Origin: Anaerolineae bacterium | GTDB lineage: Bacteria; Chloroflexota; Anaerolineae; Aggregatilineales; J027 | DNA length: 64,000 nucleotides | Assembly: GCA_008933735.1 (NCBI GenBank) | Contig: WBUL01000013.1 | Span: forward strand, 1-64,000 | Reading direction: 5' to 3' | The notes under the pieces: generated by a model | Told to the model about the DNA's origin: nothing | Database searches by the model: none | Seen by the model: the letters and a program-made list of their open reading frames with translations, nothing else | Part shown: positions 17,273 through 24,100 of the stretch, piece after piece | Numbering within the stretch: position 1 is the first letter of the stretch | How the letters are laid out: the number at the start of each line of letters is the position of its first letter | Position numbers and translations under genes: made by a program

Positions 17273-17359
17273 GGATGACTTAATGCGCCTCAGCGCAGTA
17301 GCACAGCCACAGGTGGATTGATGATGAGTACTCTCTTACCCGCTTCTCACAGGACTCCG

Positions 17360-20300
17360 ATGAAGAAGCACATCTTTATTTCCTACGCCAGCGCTGATCG
17401 TGCCCCTGTTGAGCGTCTGCATGAGCGGCTGAAAGCCGAAGCCCTGCCTATGTGGATTGATAACTTGGATGTGAGCGAAGGTTTGAAAGCTGGGCAACCC
17501 TGGCGTGAAGGATTGGCGGAGGCACTCCAAACCGCGTTGGCTGTCGTCTGGGTAGCGTCACCTGCCAGCATGGCCAGCCCCTGGGTACGGGCTGAGCTCC
17601 AACGGACACTAGAACTGGGCAAACCTCTCATTCCTCTGGTGCTGGATGCGGACTTTGAGCAGCATCCCGGTTGGCAGGAAACTCGTGCATGGCAAACGCA
17701 AGATGGCTACCTTCTGGGTGACTTACAGCGTATTGTCCCCGCCGTACTCGGTGAAGACCTCGCCTATCGCAAGTTGGTGAGCCAGCTCTACCAACAAACA
17801 CAGTCAGCACGTATCAGCGGATTCTTCCCTTCCAGCCAGTTGGATGTGCCAATCAGTGGGCGTGAGGTTGATCTGAGGGCGGTAGAAATGCTCTTAAGGG
17901 AGGAGCGGCGTTTAGTTGTGCTGATGGCGTTGGGTGGCACGGGCAAAACACGTCTGGCGGCGGAGATTGCAGCGCGGCAGCGCACCTTCCAAGATGGTGT
18001 GGTCTGGCACAGGATAGAATCTCACAGCCGTGAAATCGACCTGAGCTATCTCATCCGCGATCATTTGCGCCTGCCTGTGGAGACCAACCACGACGAGGTA
18101 TGGGAAATCCTGGGGCGCTGCCAGGTTTTGATTGTACTGGACAATGCCGAGTCCTGTACCGATATTCCCAACTATGCCCGCCGCCTGGAGCATTACGGGT
18201 TAGCCGGCGGTACGCGCGTGCTGATGACCAGCCGTGTACAGTGGCGTGAAACACGCAAAATCAACCATATCTATGAATTGCCTGCGCCTGATCTGAAAGC
18301 GGCAACGCAGATTGCACATAACATGGCACGCCAGCAGGGCTATGCCGATAAACTGATAGGGCAAGAACAGCCATTAGCGGAAGCCGCTCGCTGCCATCCC
18401 CGTCTGATCCAATACGCGATGGGGTGGCTGCACGACTATGAACCCACGCGAGTGCTGACGATGCTCCGCACCCTCAAAGGCGGCGAGGATGTGGAAGAGG
18501 CACTGGAAGATATTCTGCACCAGACCTTGCGCCAGATCGAAGCAAGCGTGGGCGGCGAAAAAGCAATCACTGACTTGAAGCGGCTTTTGGTATGTCGGGG
18601 CGGATTCACCAGCGAAGCGGCAGAAGCCATTTTGAGTGATCTGGCCAGCCTGAGCCTGCTGCGCCGCTGGAATCTGTTACATAGGGACGGTGAGCGTTAC
18701 CAAATTGATGCGCTGGTGGAGGCTGTACTCGCACCCGACGAGACCGTCCACCCTGCACACTACGAATACTACAAAGCCCTAGCTGAGATGTATGATGCCA
18801 AGCAGGATTACGCGGGGTTGGATGCAGAGCGTGATAATCTTGAGGTGGCTTTTCAATGGGCGATGAACGCCCAAGATTGCGCCAAGGCATATTTACTTTA
18901 TGAAACATGTGATGACTACGTAGAAAACCGGGGGCGGTTTGACGACATGCAGGCCTGGATTGAGGCGATTGATGCCGGATGTCGTGGGCGCGTGAACCCT
19001 GCCCAACAAGCGTATTTGGATACCAGTTTAGGTAATATGCTAGTGCGTTTACGGAAAGGGGACAGACTGGCTAATCTTAAGCGTGCCATTGCCTATTATG
19101 AAGCAGCGCTGGTCTATCGTACTCCCACAACAACACCGATAGATTATGCTGAAACTCAGCGCAGTTTAGGCACAACTTACTGGCAATTAGCGGAAGTAGA
19201 AGCACGTGCAGCCAATCTAAACCGTGCCATCGCCTGTTTTGAAGAAACCTTGACTTATCACACCCCTGTTACTGCCCCGATGGCTTATGCTATGGCGCAG
19301 AATAATCTGGGTACAGCTTATATAGATTTGGCGGAGGTGGAAGAACAGGTCGTCAACCTCAAGCGTGCCATTGCCTGTTTTGAGATCGCATCAGAATATT
19401 ATACTCCTACTACCGCTCCACTGAGTTATGCCATGACACAAAGCAATTTAGGATTGGCCTATGAGGTGTTAGCGGGGCTGGAAGAGCGAGAGACCAATCT
19501 CAGACGTGCTATCGCTTATCTTGAACGTGCATCAGAATATTATACCCCCGTTACCGCACCGCTGGGTTATGCCATGGTACAGAATAATCTGGGCAATACC
19601 TACTGGAATTTGGCAAAAATTGAAGAGCGTGCAGCCAATCTAAAGCGTGCCATTACCTGCTATGAGGAGGCACTTGTCTATCATAACCCCACTACTGCCC
19701 CGCTAGAATACGCCATGACTCAAGCCAATTTAGGTAGCACTTACCAGGATCTGGCAGAAGTGGAAGAACATAAAGCTAACTTTAAGCGAGCTATCGCCTG
19801 CTACCAGGAAGCGCTGATTTATGGTACATCCACCACCAGTCCACTAGGCTATGGTGCAGTACAGAACAACCTGGGGCAAACCTATGCTAAGTTGGCGAAA
19901 CTGGAAGAACGAACCGTCAATCTAAAGCGTGCCATAGCGTGCTATGAAGAAGCACTGGTTTATCGTACCTCTAGCAATGCTCCACTGGATTATGCAGCGA
20001 CACAAAACAATCTGGGATTAGCATACTGGTATTTGGCAGATGTGGAAGAACGAGGTGCCAACCTCAATCAGGCTGTCACCTGCTATGAAGAAGCACTCAT
20101 CTATTGTACCCCGACCACTGCTCCACTGGATTATGCCAGAACGCAGCATAACCTGGGGTTAGTCTATAGAGACTTGAAGGAAAAAGAAAAAAGCAAAACG
20201 TCCTTTCAGGAAGCTGAGAAATATTATCGTCTGATGGGAGAGGTAGAAAAAGCTGAGGGAGCACTGGCACAGATCAATTGGTTTGTTTGGTGGAAGATTT

Positions 20301-20503
20301 TAATTTCTATACCAGTTTCGGTGATAAGGTCGGTGTGGAAAGAATTTCTCCTCCTCCTCAGCCTGTTTCTGGCTTGTGCAGGGGCGAGTTTGTTCAGTGT
20401 TATGTGGTTATGGTCGCATATAGGTTGGGCAGCGGGGGTTATCGTCGCCGTAGTGCTCATTTGGTTGTGGTGGCGGCTGCTCAAATGGTTTAACTGGGAT
20501 TAG
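17360..20503 (+). CDS. TIR - NB-ARC - TPR protein with C-terminal membrane helices
   Basis: The product is 1047 residues from the ATG at 17360, which has AGGA upstream and begins the first TIR strand (HIFISYASADR). A start 42 nt earlier is possible. Domains: TIR (about 2-140), with the candidate NADase glutamate in SPWVRAELQ (residue 79); an NB-ARC type STAND ATPase (about 165-480), with P-loop GGTGKT (192-197), Walker B LIVLDNAE and sensor MTSR; a winged-helix region; then eight 47-residue TPR units and a ninth partial unit. Two hydrophobic helices lie in the last 55 residues. Bacterial TIR-STAND proteins are anti-phage sensors that destroy NAD+ after target recognition by the repeats. The membrane tail suggests a membrane-located sensor or effector. 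The phage target is unknown. Confidence 0.88.
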   Translation: MKKHIFISYASADRAPVERLHERLKAEALPMWIDNLDVSEGLKAGQPWREGLAEALQTALAVVWVASPASMASPWVRAELQRTLELGKPLIPLVLDADFEQHPGWQETRAWQTQDGYLLGDLQRIVPAVLGEDLAYRKLVSQLYQQTQSARISGFFPSSQLDVPISGREVDLRAVEMLLREERRLVVLMALGGTGKTRLAAEIAARQRTFQDGVVWHRIESHSREIDLSYLIRDHLRLPVETNHDEVWEILGRCQVLIVLDNAESCTDIPNYARRLEHYGLAGGTRVLMTSRVQWRETRKINHIYELPAPDLKAATQIAHNMARQQGYADKLIGQEQPLAEAARCHPRLIQYAMGWLHDYEPTRVLTMLRTLKGGEDVEEALEDILHQTLRQIEASVGGEKAITDLKRLLVCRGGFTSEAAEAILSDLASLSLLRRWNLLHRDGERYQIDALVEAVLAPDETVHPAHYEYYKALAEMYDAKQDYAGLDAERDNLEVAFQWAMNAQDCAKAYLLYETCDDYVENRGRFDDMQAWIEAIDAGCRGRVNPAQQAYLDTSLGNMLVRLRKGDRLANLKRAIAYYEAALVYRTPTTTPIDYAETQRSLGTTYWQLAEVEARAANLNRAIACFEETLTYHTPVTAPMAYAMAQNNLGTAYIDLAEVEEQVVNLKRAIACFEIASEYYTPTTAPLSYAMTQSNLGLAYEVLAGLEERETNLRRAIAYLERASEYYTPVTAPLGYAMVQNNLGNTYWNLAKIEERAANLKRAITCYEEALVYHNPTTAPLEYAMTQANLGSTYQDLAEVEEHKANFKRAIACYQEALIYGTSTTSPLGYGAVQNNLGQTYAKLAKLEERTVNLKRAIACYEEALVYRTSSNAPLDYAATQNNLGLAYWYLADVEERGANLNQAVTCYEEALIYCTPTTAPLDYARTQHNLGLVYRDLKEKEKSKTSFQEAEKYYRLMGEVEKAEGALAQINWFVWWKILISIPVSVIRSVWKEFLLLLSLFLACAGASLFSVMWLWSHIGWAAGVIVAVVLIWLWWRLLKWFNWD
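19073..20200 (+). repeat. Eight tandem 141-bp repeats encoding TPR units
   Basis: Units start at 19073, 19214, 19355, 19496, 19637, 19778, 19919 and 20060, each exactly 141 bp (47 codons) and in frame. The protein consensus per unit runs NLKRAIACYEEALVY, then a TPTTAPLDYA turn, then TQNNLGTAYWDLAEVEER. The constant length points to tandem duplication, and copy number could vary between strains. The units appear AT-richer than the TIR and ATPase parts. Confidence 0.9.
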
Positions 20504-20674
20504 GAATGAGCCACAATGAGCCATATCATCCAACATCACACTGAGGTAGGCAGCAAATCCCAGACAAAAGGCTGCTGCTCGTGATTTCTTGGTAGGGTAT
20601 TGACGTTGTTGGCGAAATCAGGCGTCAGGAAAGCGGGTATGCCGTCTAGCCAGTTAATCTATCGCTAAAAAGGC
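20504..20674. other. Intergenic stretch with no recognised element
   Basis: The 171 nt between the TIR stop and the leuS-leader promoter hold no ORF of note and no clear T-run terminator. It is the first part of a 399-nt gene-free region whose remainder is the promoter and T-box leader described below. Confidence 0.5.
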
Positions 20675-20704
20675 TTGACAAGGCATTTTTGTATCGAATA
20701 CAAT
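20675..20704 (+). promoter_or_regulatory. Promoter of the T-box leader / tRNA-Ala / leuS unit
   Basis: TTGACA (20675-20680) matches the -35 consensus exactly. It is followed by an 18-nt spacer and TACAAT (20699-20704). The predicted start is near 20711, just before T-box stem I. No comparable promoter is visible immediately before the tRNA, so the tRNA, leader and leuS should be one transcription unit. Confidence 0.8.
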
Positions 20705-20902
20705 CCCACCGACAACTGCACATTCAAAGGCGATGAACGGGAGTAGTAAACGCACTACTCAGCGAACCGGGGAGGGTGCAAGCCCGGTGAAGTGTCAAGT
20801 AGGCACCAATGCGTTGAACTCGCCCGGAAGCCGCACAGGGGAAATCCAGTAGTCTGTGCCGAGTAACGCCCGTTAAGCGTCGAATCAAGTGGGTAGTCTC
20901 AT

Positions 20903-20975
20903 GGGCCCATAGCTCAGCTGGGAGAGCGCTTCAATGGCATTGAAGAGGTCAAGAGTTCGAATCTCTTTGGGTCCA
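20903..20975 (+). tRNA. tRNA-Ala(GGC), nested inside the leuS T-box leader
   Basis: This is a 73-nt cloverleaf. The acceptor stem pairs GGGCCCA with TGGGTCC, including G3-U70, the alanine identity pair. The D-arm is GCTC/GAGC, the anticodon arm CTTCA-ATGGCAT-TGAAG with anticodon GGC, the variable loop 5 nt, and the T-arm AAGAG-TTCGAAT-CTCTT. The discriminator is A. CCA is not encoded. It sits after the conserved AAGTGGG segment of the T-box leader and 16 nt before the T-box sequence. RNase P and RNase Z processing would cut the leader into a sensor half and an antiterminator half. Confidence 0.95.
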
Positions 20976-21022
20976 CTTTCTTAGTGCTACCAATGAGGGT
21001 GGTAACGCGGAGTCTCTTTCCG

Positions 21023-21081
21023 TCCCTGTCGTGTACGTGACCGTATGCGAAAAGGTGATGAAAGGGATTTTTTGTTTTTTT
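21023..21081 (+). terminator. Conditional terminator of the T-box
   Basis: TCCCT (21023-21027) pairs with AGGGA (21063-21067). An inner helix TGTACG/CGTATG (with two G-U pairs) fits inside. A T-run interrupted by one G follows (21068-21081). It is the alternative to the antiterminator and would also serve as the 3' terminator of the tRNA-Ala transcript. Confidence 0.75.
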
Positions 21082-21140
21082 CGCATTTTGTATAGACTAT
21101 ATATAGGTGTCCTCGTTAGTAGCTGATTGAGAAAGCAGTC

Positions 21141-21293
21141 ATGACCAAAACAGCAGAGAAAAAGCAGCGTTCGATTCTCGATAGTCTCCTTGATCTCTTG
21201 GAGACACTCGGCAAACTTCTTAAGCCGAACGATGCTGCCCGTGCACCCATTCCGGCTCGCACGAATCAAAAAGGTCGCTACAAACAAAGGTAA
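21141..21293 (+). CDS. 50-residue Leu-rich small ORF between T-box and leuS
   Basis: An ATG at 21141 opens 50 codons ending at TAA 21291-21293, 14 nt before leuS. Residues 12-28 form an amphipathic, leucine-rich segment (ILDSLLDLLETLGKLLK), and the tail is basic. Its eight Leu codons are four CTC, three CTT and one TTG, with no CTG, although neighbouring genes favour CTG. CTC and CTT are read by tRNA-Leu(GAG), the same tRNA the T-box specifier would sense. A weak GAGAAAG precedes the start. It may be a leader peptide that adds translational control of leuS, or an ordinary small protein. I do not recognise a family. Confidence 0.5.
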   Translation: MTKTAEKKQRSILDSLLDLLETLGKLLKPNDAARAPIPARTNQKGRYKQR

Positions 21294-21307
21294 CCTGAGG
21301 AGAACAT

Positions 21308-24100
21308 ATGACCGTCAAGCCTGCTGAGTATAATCCAAAACAAATTGAAAGTTACTGGTCAGAAAAGTGGGAAAGAGACGGTCTCTATCGCTCCCGCGTT
21401 GATTGGTCAAAACCCAAGCATTATGCGCTGACCATGCTGCCCTACCCCAGTGGGGATTTGCATATTGGTCACTGGTTCGCCATGACCCCCTCCGATGCTC
21501 GTGCCCGTTATATGCGGATGAAAGGTTATAACGTTCTGTTCCCGATGGGATTTGATGCGTTTGGCCTGCCCGCCGAAAATGCCGCTGTTCAGCGTAATGT
21601 TCACCCCTGGAAATGGACATATTCCAACATTGAACGGATGCGGAAGCAGTTACGCAGTATGGGCGCCATGTTCGACTGGGAGCGGGAAGTTGTAAGCTGT
21701 GACCCCAGCTATTACAAATGGACGGAATGGTTTTTCAAAGTCTTTTTTGATAACGGTCTGGCCTATCGTGGCGAAGCGATGGTTAACTGGTCGCCGACTC
21801 TGCAAACGGTGCTGGCAAATGAACAGGTCATTGACGGCAAAGATGAGCGCACCGGACAGCCCGTCATTCAAAAACTGATGACCCAGTGGTTTTTTAATAT
21901 CACACGTTATGCGGACGAACTGCTGGACTACAGCTCACTGGATTGGCCTGAAACGGTCATCAACATGCAGAAAAACTGGATTGGCCGCAGTGAAGGTGCA
22001 CAGGTCACGTTTAAAACTGAACACGGGGATGCCATAGAAATTTTTACGACGCGGCCAGATACGTTATGGGGCGCAACCTTCATGGTATTGGCACCGGAAC
22101 ACCCGCTGGTAGAGAAGGTCACCAGCGAAGGGCAAAAAGCGGCGGTTGAGACCTATAAAGCCCAGGTTGCCCGTCTGACCGAAATTGACCGCACCGCCGA
22201 AGACCGCGAGAAAACCGGCATGTTCACAGGCGGCTACGCGATCAATCCAGTCAACAATGAGCGCATTCCGATCTGGATTGCGGATTACGTGTTGATCACC
22301 TATGGAAGCGGCGCGATTATGGCGGTTCCTGCTCATGATCAGCGCGACTTTGAATTTGCCCGCAAGTTTAACCTGCCGATTCGTGTGGTCATTCAGCCTG
22401 AAGGGGAAACCCTGAATCCTGATACGATGCCCGAAGCACACTCGCACGAGGGGATCATGGTCAACAGTGGCCCGTTTAACGGAACACCAGCCACTAATGA
22501 CAAAGGGCGGAAGAATCCTGCTATCAACGCTGTCATTGATTGGCTGGAGGTACAGGGTATCGGTAAGGAAGCCGTAAATTATCGTCTGCGTGACTGGCTG
22601 ATCAGCCGCCAGCGCTACTGGGGAGCGCCGATCCCCATTGTATATGGTGAAGATGGCACAGTTGAATCGGTACCAGAAGAGGATTTACCTGTCCTGCTGC
22701 CCGAAGATGTGGAGTTTATGCCGACGGGCCAGAGTCCGTTGATGTTCCATCAGGGTTTTTTGAACACAAAGACCCGTGATGGCAAACCTGCTCGCCGGGA
22801 AACTGACACCATGGACACCTTTATGTGCTCCTCATGGTATCAGTTGCGTTACCTGAGCCCGAATTACGACCATGCACCGTTTGATCCTGAAGAAGCGGCG
22901 TATTGGCTGCCAGTAGATGTATATACCGGTGGGGTAGAACACGCGACCATGCACCTGCTGTATACACGCGAGTTTACCAAAGCGCTGCGTGACTTTGGTG
23001 TGTATGATGCCACTGCCGAGGCGATGCGGCGGCATGGCCGTAATCCTGAGGGGCAGTTTGATGAACCCATGCTGGTGCTGCGAAATCAGGGACAAATCCT
23101 GGGAGAAGCACGTCCGGGGCATTTTGTGATGGCGTCCGGGCATTTTGAAGGCGAAAAGCTGTTTGCCAACAAAGTGAAGGTGGTTGACCGCAACGCGCCT
23201 GTTCCTGCTAATTTTGACGGTGTAGCGGGAGAAATTATCCGCCGGACGGAACGCATTCTAACCGTCGATGTGAGTACGACCGTCGATGAAAAACTGGTGA
23301 CGGTAGAAGTGCTGGACGGTGCCGAAATCGATATTCCGGAAATTGAAGGTCAGAATAACGTCAATCAGTTGAAACACCGCCTGGATATTCAGCGCATGTC
23401 CAAGAGTAAGGGCAACGTCGTCAACCCCGATGAGCTGGTAGCGAAATATGGGGCGGATACGGTACGTGCCTATCTGATGTTTGCGTTCAAATTTGAAAAG
23501 GGCGGCCCCTGGGACAGTCAGGGTATTCAGGGGGTGATACGCTGGATTAATGACGTGTGGGAAATTGTGACGACAGGTGCGCCGGAAGGCAGCCGCCCTG
23601 ACGAAAAAGCGAACCGTGACCTGCTGCGGAAAACTCACCAGACTATTGCCCGTGTGACCGATGGACTGGAAAAGTTCAGCTTTAATACGGCTGTGGCTGC
23701 ATTGATGGAATTGAAAAATCTGATGCAGGCCTCGGTGCGTGCCCAGAGTATCAGCCCGGAAGTCTGGCACGAGTCCGTCAAAAATATGCTGCTGCTGATG
23801 GCTCCCTTTACGCCGTTTCTGGCAGAAGCGCTGTGGGAACATATTGGCGAACCGTACAGTGTGCATACGCAGGCTTGGCCTGTCTATAACGCTGAAATCG
23901 CTGCTGAGGACGAAGTCACCCTGGTGGTACAGATTAACGGCAAGGTTCGTGATCGGATTCAGGTTCCTGCCAGCATTACCGAGGAGGAGGCCAAAGCAAC
24001 CGCGCTGGCTTCGGAGCGAGTGCGCGAATTCTTGAATGGTGGTCAGCCCAAAAAGGTAATCTACATCGCTAAAGGGAACATGGTGAGTATCGTCATTTAG
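21308..24100 (+). CDS. leuS: Leucyl-tRNA synthetase
   Basis: This is 930 residues, longer than the roughly 860 of E. coli LeuRS. The class I signatures are YPSGDLHIGHW (HIGH at 52-55) and RMSKSKGN (MSKSK at 697-701). The CP1 editing domain lies between them, with the threonine-rich segment TTRPDTLWGATF. An extended region of about 100 residues before MSKSK (LVLRNQGQILGEARPGHF onward) corresponds to an enlarged leucine-specific insertion and explains the extra length. The enzyme charges tRNA-Leu with leucine. GAGGAG lies 6 nt before the ATG. Transcription is controlled by the upstream T-box. Confidence 0.97.
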   Translation: MTVKPAEYNPKQIESYWSEKWERDGLYRSRVDWSKPKHYALTMLPYPSGDLHIGHWFAMTPSDARARYMRMKGYNVLFPMGFDAFGLPAENAAVQRNVHPWKWTYSNIERMRKQLRSMGAMFDWEREVVSCDPSYYKWTEWFFKVFFDNGLAYRGEAMVNWSPTLQTVLANEQVIDGKDERTGQPVIQKLMTQWFFNITRYADELLDYSSLDWPETVINMQKNWIGRSEGAQVTFKTEHGDAIEIFTTRPDTLWGATFMVLAPEHPLVEKVTSEGQKAAVETYKAQVARLTEIDRTAEDREKTGMFTGGYAINPVNNERIPIWIADYVLITYGSGAIMAVPAHDQRDFEFARKFNLPIRVVIQPEGETLNPDTMPEAHSHEGIMVNSGPFNGTPATNDKGRKNPAINAVIDWLEVQGIGKEAVNYRLRDWLISRQRYWGAPIPIVYGEDGTVESVPEEDLPVLLPEDVEFMPTGQSPLMFHQGFLNTKTRDGKPARRETDTMDTFMCSSWYQLRYLSPNYDHAPFDPEEAAYWLPVDVYTGGVEHATMHLLYTREFTKALRDFGVYDATAEAMRRHGRNPEGQFDEPMLVLRNQGQILGEARPGHFVMASGHFEGEKLFANKVKVVDRNAPVPANFDGVAGEIIRRTERILTVDVSTTVDEKLVTVEVLDGAEIDIPEIEGQNNVNQLKHRLDIQRMSKSKGNVVNPDELVAKYGADTVRAYLMFAFKFEKGGPWDSQGIQGVIRWINDVWEIVTTGAPEGSRPDEKANRDLLRKTHQTIARVTDGLEKFSFNTAVAALMELKNLMQASVRAQSISPEVWHESVKNMLLLMAPFTPFLAEALWEHIGEPYSVHTQAWPVYNAEIAAEDEVTLVVQINGKVRDRIQVPASITEEEAKATALASERVREFLNGGQPKKVIYIAKGNMVSIVI

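What the first reader, a model, noticed from the sequence alone, without database searches (positions are those of the whole stretch)
20711..21081. A complete tRNA-Ala(GGC) gene nested inside the leuS T-box riboswitch
The sensor (stem I with Leu CTC specifier, stem III) ends with the conserved AAGTGGG near 20896, and the T-box sequence starts at 20992. Between them is a perfect tRNA-Ala with G3-U70. One strong promoter reads all of it and the T-box terminator follows. If the tRNA is excised, the leader is cut between sensor and antiterminator. The tRNA would be made whether or not leuS is transcribed, because it lies before the conditional terminator. The AAGAG strand of its T-arm can also pair with CTCTT at 21013-21017, between the T-box bulge and TCCCT, giving a possible third conformation. 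I know of no described T-box with a functional tRNA embedded in it.
Basis: partly seen in the sequence, partly recalled or inferred. Interest (0 to 1): 0.92.

Follow-up and report, generated by a model that had tools for sequence, protein, structure and literature searches.

The report
tRNA gene nested inside leuS riboswitch
In this bacterium, and in many members of two bacterial phyla, the gene for an alanine transfer RNA (usually the only copy of that kind in the genome) sits inside the RNA switch that turns on leucyl-tRNA synthetase when leucine runs low, so one transcript must act as a sensor and also be cut up to yield a tRNA.

Summary
One Rfam T-box match (RF00230, 20724-21030, CTC leucine specifier) spans a complete tRNA-Ala(GGC), 20903-20975. 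The tRNA lies in the loop of T-box stem III, between the conserved flanks AAGTG and AA; leuS follows at 21308.

I checked 130 distinct loci, the window included: 68 Chloroflexota and 62 Bacillota. All carry tRNA-Ala(GGC) with G3-U70. leuS follows in 121; five others precede an AMP-binding enzyme gene. Two more cases lie among 246 Actinomycetota. The two stem III arms fit each other across the tRNA far better than arms swapped between loci. In 13 of 16 genomes tested the nested gene is the only tRNA-Ala(GGC) found, so it is probably functional and cut out of the leader.

Best reading: a dual-output transcription unit. The tRNA is made whether or not leuS is read; the T-box decides only about leuS. 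I found no description in the papers I could search. The proposed third conformation (T-arm with CTCTT) is not specifically supported. Excision, its timing and any effect on leuS are inferred, not shown.

The parts
20675..20704 (+). promoter-like site TTGACA-18-TACAAT for the whole leader
   Evidence: consensus scan, 11 of 12 matches, the only site found in 20550-21350; 0.9 expected by chance, so position upstream of the leader is what makes it likely
20724..21030 (+). T-box riboswitch (RF00230), interrupted by the tRNA
   Evidence: cmscan 74.8 bits, E 2.5e-16, model 1-219; same in relatives
20819..20821 (+). specifier codon CTC (Leu)
   Evidence: read from the Rfam alignment, GAA-CTC-GCC; the genome holds tRNA-Leu(GAG) with A73
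20887..20891 (+). AAGTG, the RRRxG motif on the 5' side of stem III
   Evidence: sequence; motif as described in PMC7583486
20892..20897 (+). stem III 5' arm GGTAGT
   Evidence: pairs with 20986-20991
20903..20975 (+). tRNA-Ala, anticodon GGC, G3-U70, A73, CCA not encoded
   Evidence: ARAGORN, RF00005 63.9 bits; only tRNA-Ala(GGC) found in the genome
20986..20991 (+). stem III 3' arm GCTACC
20996..21027 (+). T-box sequence and antiterminator AGGGTGGTAACGCGG...CCGTCCCT with bulge TGGTAAC (21000-21006)
   Evidence: Rfam alignment; bulge UGGU fits A73-CCA of tRNA-Leu
21011..21081 (+). competing terminator stem (about 21011-21069) and T-run
   Evidence: minimum-energy fold of 21010-21075, -28.6 kcal/mol
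21308..24100 (+). leuS, leucyl-tRNA synthetase, 930 aa
   Evidence: Pfam tRNA-synt_1_2 (Leu editing domain), tRNA-synt_1, Anticodon_1

Best explanation
A dual-output transcription unit. One promoter makes a leader in which RNA polymerase first writes the leucine sensor (stem I with CTC, stem II), then one arm of stem III, then a complete tRNA-Ala(GGC), then the other arm of stem III and the antiterminator/terminator. Uncharged tRNA-Leu(GAG), bound to the sensor and to the UGGU bulge, favours the antiterminator and leuS is read; charged tRNA-Leu lets the terminator form. tRNA-Ala precedes the decision point, so every initiated transcript yields it, and RNase P plus 3' processing release it. A tRNA can live in the stem III loop because its two ends lie side by side, so the helix and its flanking purines stay in register. 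Shown: anatomy, conservation, stem III pairing across the insert, a fitting tRNA-Leu, sole-copy status in most genomes tested. Inferred: transcription from the one promoter, excision, T-box activity, and that the cut mostly follows the termination decision or is bridged by stem III and the bound tRNA-Leu.
For: One T-box match spans the tRNA in the window and in every nested relative scanned (16, 20, 10). 130 of 130 distinct loci carry tRNA-Ala(GGC) with G3-U70 although the search pattern accepts any tRNA; leuS downstream in 121. Stem III arms: cis duplex -10.5 against swapped -7.3, SD 0.26; pair run 5.1 against 2.2, SD 0.12. Sole tRNA-Ala(GGC) match in 13 of 16 genomes. tRNA-Leu(GAG) with A73 in the own genome. 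No second promoter-like site found. In relatives the same tRNA gene lies outside, just upstream of an intact leuS T-box, the same logic without nesting. Cuts between stem I and the T-box are known for S. aureus leuS, valS and serS leaders (PMC4608709).
Against: No transcript data at all. The window's T-box scores below Rfam's cut-off and its bulge reads TGGTAAC, not TGGTACC. Some relatives have very short stem III (about 4 pairs, e.g. L008, L015), where excision would leave little to hold the halves together, and in about a quarter of loci the anchored pairing is interrupted or short. If tRNA output were all that mattered, placement upstream of the T-box would do, so nesting may have a purpose that this model does not explain.
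Confidence: 0.77

Rival explanations
1. Processing-gated or timed switch: the nested tRNA changes how leuS is regulated. Either RNase P/3' cutting before the decision splits the T-box and biases the outcome, or the 75 extra bases and folding of the tRNA delay the antiterminator and give tRNA-Leu more time to dock.
For: The cut falls inside the discriminator, and stem III is reported to be indispensable for binding the tRNA 3' end (PMC7583486). Nesting persists in distant lineages although an outside arrangement exists.
Against: No data on timing. Relatives with the tRNA outside keep a leuS T-box with a short stem III, so the tRNA is not required for the switch.
Confidence: 0.15
2. The T-box half is decayed and the locus is now just a tRNA gene with switch remnants in front of leuS.
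For: Window score below cut-off. One relative (L263) keeps promoter, stem III, tRNA and T-box motif while stem I is not recognisable.
Against: Specifier, stem II, stem III flanks, T-box and terminator are kept across distant lineages, with up to 125 bits in Bacillota and stem III arms that match in cis.
Confidence: 0.05
3. The tRNA-like element is structural (a stem III cap), not a tRNA used in translation.
For: Other T-boxes of the group have long non-tRNA inserts at the same place (L049, L064, L065).
Against: GGC anticodon and G3-U70 in 130 of 130; usually the only tRNA-Ala(GGC) found.
Confidence: 0.02
4. Assembly join or chance neighbourhood.
For: The window is from an unfinished genome of 38 contigs, 81.5% complete.
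Against: 129 further loci, many on large or single contigs, with one spanning T-box match wherever scanned; pattern hits 84 of 398 Bacillota against 3 control hits.
Confidence: 0.005

Closest known systems
T-box riboswitch (Rfam RF00230), transcriptional, leucine type of leuS
   Same: Stem I with CTC specifier, stem II, stem III with RRRxG...AA flanks, T-box bulge, antiterminator and terminator, leuS downstream
   Different: A complete tRNA-Ala gene fills the stem III loop; none of the T-box papers read describes this
tRNA gene directly upstream of a T-box (Anaerolineales tRNA-Ala(CGC)-tRNA-Ala(GGC)-T-box-leuS; tRNA-Thr(CGT) before a T-box in the own genome)
   Same: Same tRNA-Ala(GGC), same leuS T-box, presumably one transcript
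   Different: There the T-box is intact and the tRNA lies outside it
Endonucleolytic cutting of T-box leaders (RNase Y on S. aureus leuS, valS, serS)
   Same: Leader cut in the region between stem I and the T-box (PMC4608709)
   Different: There the cut starts decay of the leader; here it would be tRNA maturation by RNase P and 3' nucleases

Membership tests
T-box riboswitch (RF00230) | Match to the family model over its whole length | tested here: met
   Positions 1-219, E 2.5e-16; 74.8 bits is below the curated 93, while relatives with the same insert exceed it
T-box riboswitch (RF00230) | Specifier codon matching the regulated gene, with a cognate tRNA in the genome | tested here: met
   CTC (Leu) before leuS; tRNA-Leu(GAG) found
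T-box riboswitch (RF00230) | Stem III with RRRxG and AA flanks | tested here: met
   AAGTG-GGTAGT...GCTACC-AA; arms fit in cis across loci
T-box riboswitch (RF00230) | T-box bulge complementary to the tRNA 3' end (UGGN to NCCA) | tested here: met
   UGGU in the leader, A73 in tRNA-Leu(GAG); remainder of the bulge is AAC where the consensus has ACC
T-box riboswitch (RF00230) | Mutually exclusive antiterminator and terminator | tested here: inconclusive
   Both can be drawn and the terminator is the predicted minimum-energy fold; switching was not measured
T-box riboswitch (RF00230) | Response to uncharged tRNA | not testable with these tools
   needs a termination assay or reporter
Functional tRNA-Ala gene | Cloverleaf, GGC anticodon, G3-U70 | tested here: met
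   130 of 130 loci
Functional tRNA-Ala gene | Needed by the genome (sole copy) | tested here: met
   13 of 16 genomes have no other match to a tRNA-Ala(GGC) pattern
Functional tRNA-Ala gene | Excised and matured | not testable with these tools
   needs RNA end mapping or a Northern blot

The most novel reading that the evidence does not exclude
tRNA maturation and the riboswitch decision are mechanistically coupled: cutting out the nested tRNA splits the T-box inside its discriminator, so leuS output depends on both uncharged tRNA-Leu and tRNA processing, or the tRNA serves as a co-transcriptional timer. The nested unit would be an ancient one kept across phyla for that coupling.
Probability: 0.15. 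Interest if true: 0.95.

Novelty: new variant of a known kind. Interest (0 to 1): 0.86.

Why it matters
It shows that a riboswitch can host a whole gene in one of its functional helices, and that a genome's only tRNA-Ala(GGC) can be a by-product of a leucine-sensing leader. It makes testable whether a T-box still works when split within stem III, how RNase P timing relates to a co-transcriptional decision, and why this one pair (tRNA-Ala(GGC) with the leuS T-box) has been kept in Chloroflexota and Bacillota. It also warns annotators: at the default cut-off Rfam reported only the tRNA in this window and missed the switch around it.

Tried and rejected
A first, too loose pattern matched nearly every genome and was discarded. 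BLAST against plasmids found only ordinary tRNA genes. The third conformation was tested and is no better in cis than after swapping. A decayed tRNA inside stem III of the Anaerolineales T-boxes was looked for: L049, L064 and L065 have long inserts there, but they fold as simple long hairpins, not tRNAs. A script count of encoded CCA ends was flawed and is not used; by eye some loci encode CCA (L190, L253-L262) and others, the window included, do not, so a cis pairing of an encoded ACCA end with the UGGU bulge is not a conserved feature. Eight literature searches in different wordings found no description.

Full report
What is there. The window belongs to a Chloroflexota genome (G000, 38 contigs, 81.5% complete; the phylum follows from the named LeuS neighbours). 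Between a promoter-like TTGACA-18-TACAAT (20675-20704) and leuS (21308-24100) lies a leader in which Rfam's T-box model matches 20724-21030 from its first to its last position, with an 88-nt insert (74.8 bits, E 2.5e-16, below the curated cut-off of 93). The insert holds a complete tRNA-Ala(GGC), 20903-20975. At the default cut-off Rfam reports only the tRNA.

Where it sits. A 2020 review (PMC7583486) describes stem III as part of the T-box discriminator, flanked by a conserved 5'-RRRxG-stem III-AA-3'. The window reads AAGTG (20887-20891), GGTAGT (20892-20897), five bases, tRNA, ten bases, GCTACC (20986-20991), AA, then AGGGTGG from 20996. The tRNA therefore occupies the stem III loop. Folding 20890-20996 alone gives stem III with a cloverleaf inside it. 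The specifier is CTC (20819-20821). The own genome has a tRNA-Leu(GAG) whose A73 suits the UGGU bulge.

It is conserved. A search of 60 relatives showed the composite in all nine genomes of the own family and in other families of the order. Rfam's T-box model spans the tRNA in all 16 nested relatives scanned and all 20. A pattern joining a generic tRNA 3' half to the T-box motif within 32 bases hit 37 of 400 Chloroflexota with one hit for the reversed control, 33 of 154 genomes of the own order with none, 84 of 398 genomes of a Bacillota phylum with three control hits and a few visibly false matches, and 5 of 246 Actinomycetota, of which two are real. I checked 130 distinct loci, the window included: 62, 10, 58; 68 are Chloroflexota and 62 Bacillota. 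Every one is tRNA-Ala(GGC) with G3-U70, although the pattern would accept any tRNA. leuS was found downstream in 121. Five of the rest precede an AMP-binding enzyme (L284-L288 by sequence; one scanned, PF00501, 349 bits); the other four lack leuS within the stretch held. Ten Bacillota loci score 95-125 bits, above the cut-off, with the tRNA inside.

Stem III is maintained across the tRNA. In the 62 loci the two flanks of the tRNA pair with mean duplex energy -10.5 kcal/mol in cis, against -7.3 (SD 0.26) when 3' flanks are swapped between loci. Anchored on the RRRxG and AA motifs in 129 loci, the uninterrupted run of pairs averages 5.1 in cis against 2.2 (SD 0.12) swapped, and different pair types occur at the same position in different lineages. 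Shared ancestry inflates such numbers somewhat. In about a quarter of loci the anchored run is short, mostly because of a mismatch near the base (Ktedonobacteria-like loci) or a minimal stem.

The tRNA is real and probably needed. In 13 of 16 genomes tested, several on single contigs, the nested gene is the only match to a tRNA-Ala(GGC) pattern that looks like a tRNA; three Ktedonobacteria-like genomes have a second copy (family f37 groups with a named Ktedonobacteraceae LeuS). A divergent tRNA-Ala gene could escape the pattern. In the own genome 36 tRNAs were found, with alanine anticodons GGC (nested) and CGC only; the assembly is incomplete.

Evolution. In Anaerolineales relatives tRNA-Ala(CGC) and tRNA-Ala(GGC) lie mostly 200-370 nt before the T-box motif and the whole T-box follows them. 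Some Ktedonobacteria-like genomes have CGC before the T-box and GGC inside it. On a LeuS tree (193 rows, N-terminal part, quick method) nested loci occur on both sides of the main Chloroflexota/Bacillota division and on early branches of each, while the outside arrangement sits within Chloroflexota. The simplest reading is that nesting is old and the Anaerolineales arrangement derived, but transfer of the leuS cassette cannot be excluded. Named Clostridia in the set (Tepidanaerobacter, Moorella) lack it.

How it most likely works. Transcription order makes tRNA-Ala before the termination decision, so each initiation can yield a tRNA and the T-box controls only leuS. A tRNA's ends are adjacent, so placing one in a hairpin loop leaves the helix intact. 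The same site carries short hairpins or long non-tRNA inserts in relatives. Cutting in this region is known for T-box leaders: S. aureus RNase Y cuts the leuS, valS and serS T-boxes between stem I and the T-box (PMC4608709). Excision, timing and regulation remain inferred.

Novelty. The T-box reviews, the TBDB paper and an early genomic survey that I could read do not mention it, and eight searches of 5.39 million open papers found nothing. Subscription journals are not covered, and the above-cut-off Bacillota cases may sit unnoticed in T-box databases. By membership it is a T-box; its architecture, a gene nested in a functional helix of the switch, is a new variant as far as I can tell.

Noticed in passing
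window 21141-21293 (+): A 50-aa open frame, leucine-rich (SILDSLLDLLETLGKLL), between the T-box terminator and leuS; similar frames lie in the same place in relatives (L017, L018, L026, L077, E 1e-3 to 3e-5), also where the tRNA is outside the T-box. No Pfam match.
   Followed up: partly
window 17318-20503 (+): Large protein with an N-terminal TIR_2 domain and C-terminal tetratricopeptide repeats just upstream of the leader, of the kind seen in signalling or defence proteins.
   Followed up: no
G000:C5:38807-39111 (loci L002, L151): In the own genome a tRNA-Thr(CGT) ends about 14 bases before another T-box (117.9 bits): a tRNA next to, not inside, a T-box.
   Followed up: no
L284, L285, L286, L287, L288: Bacillota loci with the same nested tRNA-Ala and CTC T-box, but followed by an AMP-binding enzyme gene instead of leuS.
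   Followed up: partly
L263 (G934): Promoter, stem III, tRNA-Ala and T-box are kept while stem I is not recognisable: possibly a natural deletion of the sensor that spares the tRNA.
   Followed up: no
L049, L064, L065: leuS T-boxes with long non-tRNA hairpin inserts in stem III, showing that this loop tolerates large insertions.
   Followed up: partly
window 21308-24100; L005, L013, L015, L017 against L007-L011: Two different LeuS types within the window's own family, both behind the nested leader; the window's type groups with Acidimicrobiia LeuS, which suggests gene replacement or transfer.
   Followed up: no
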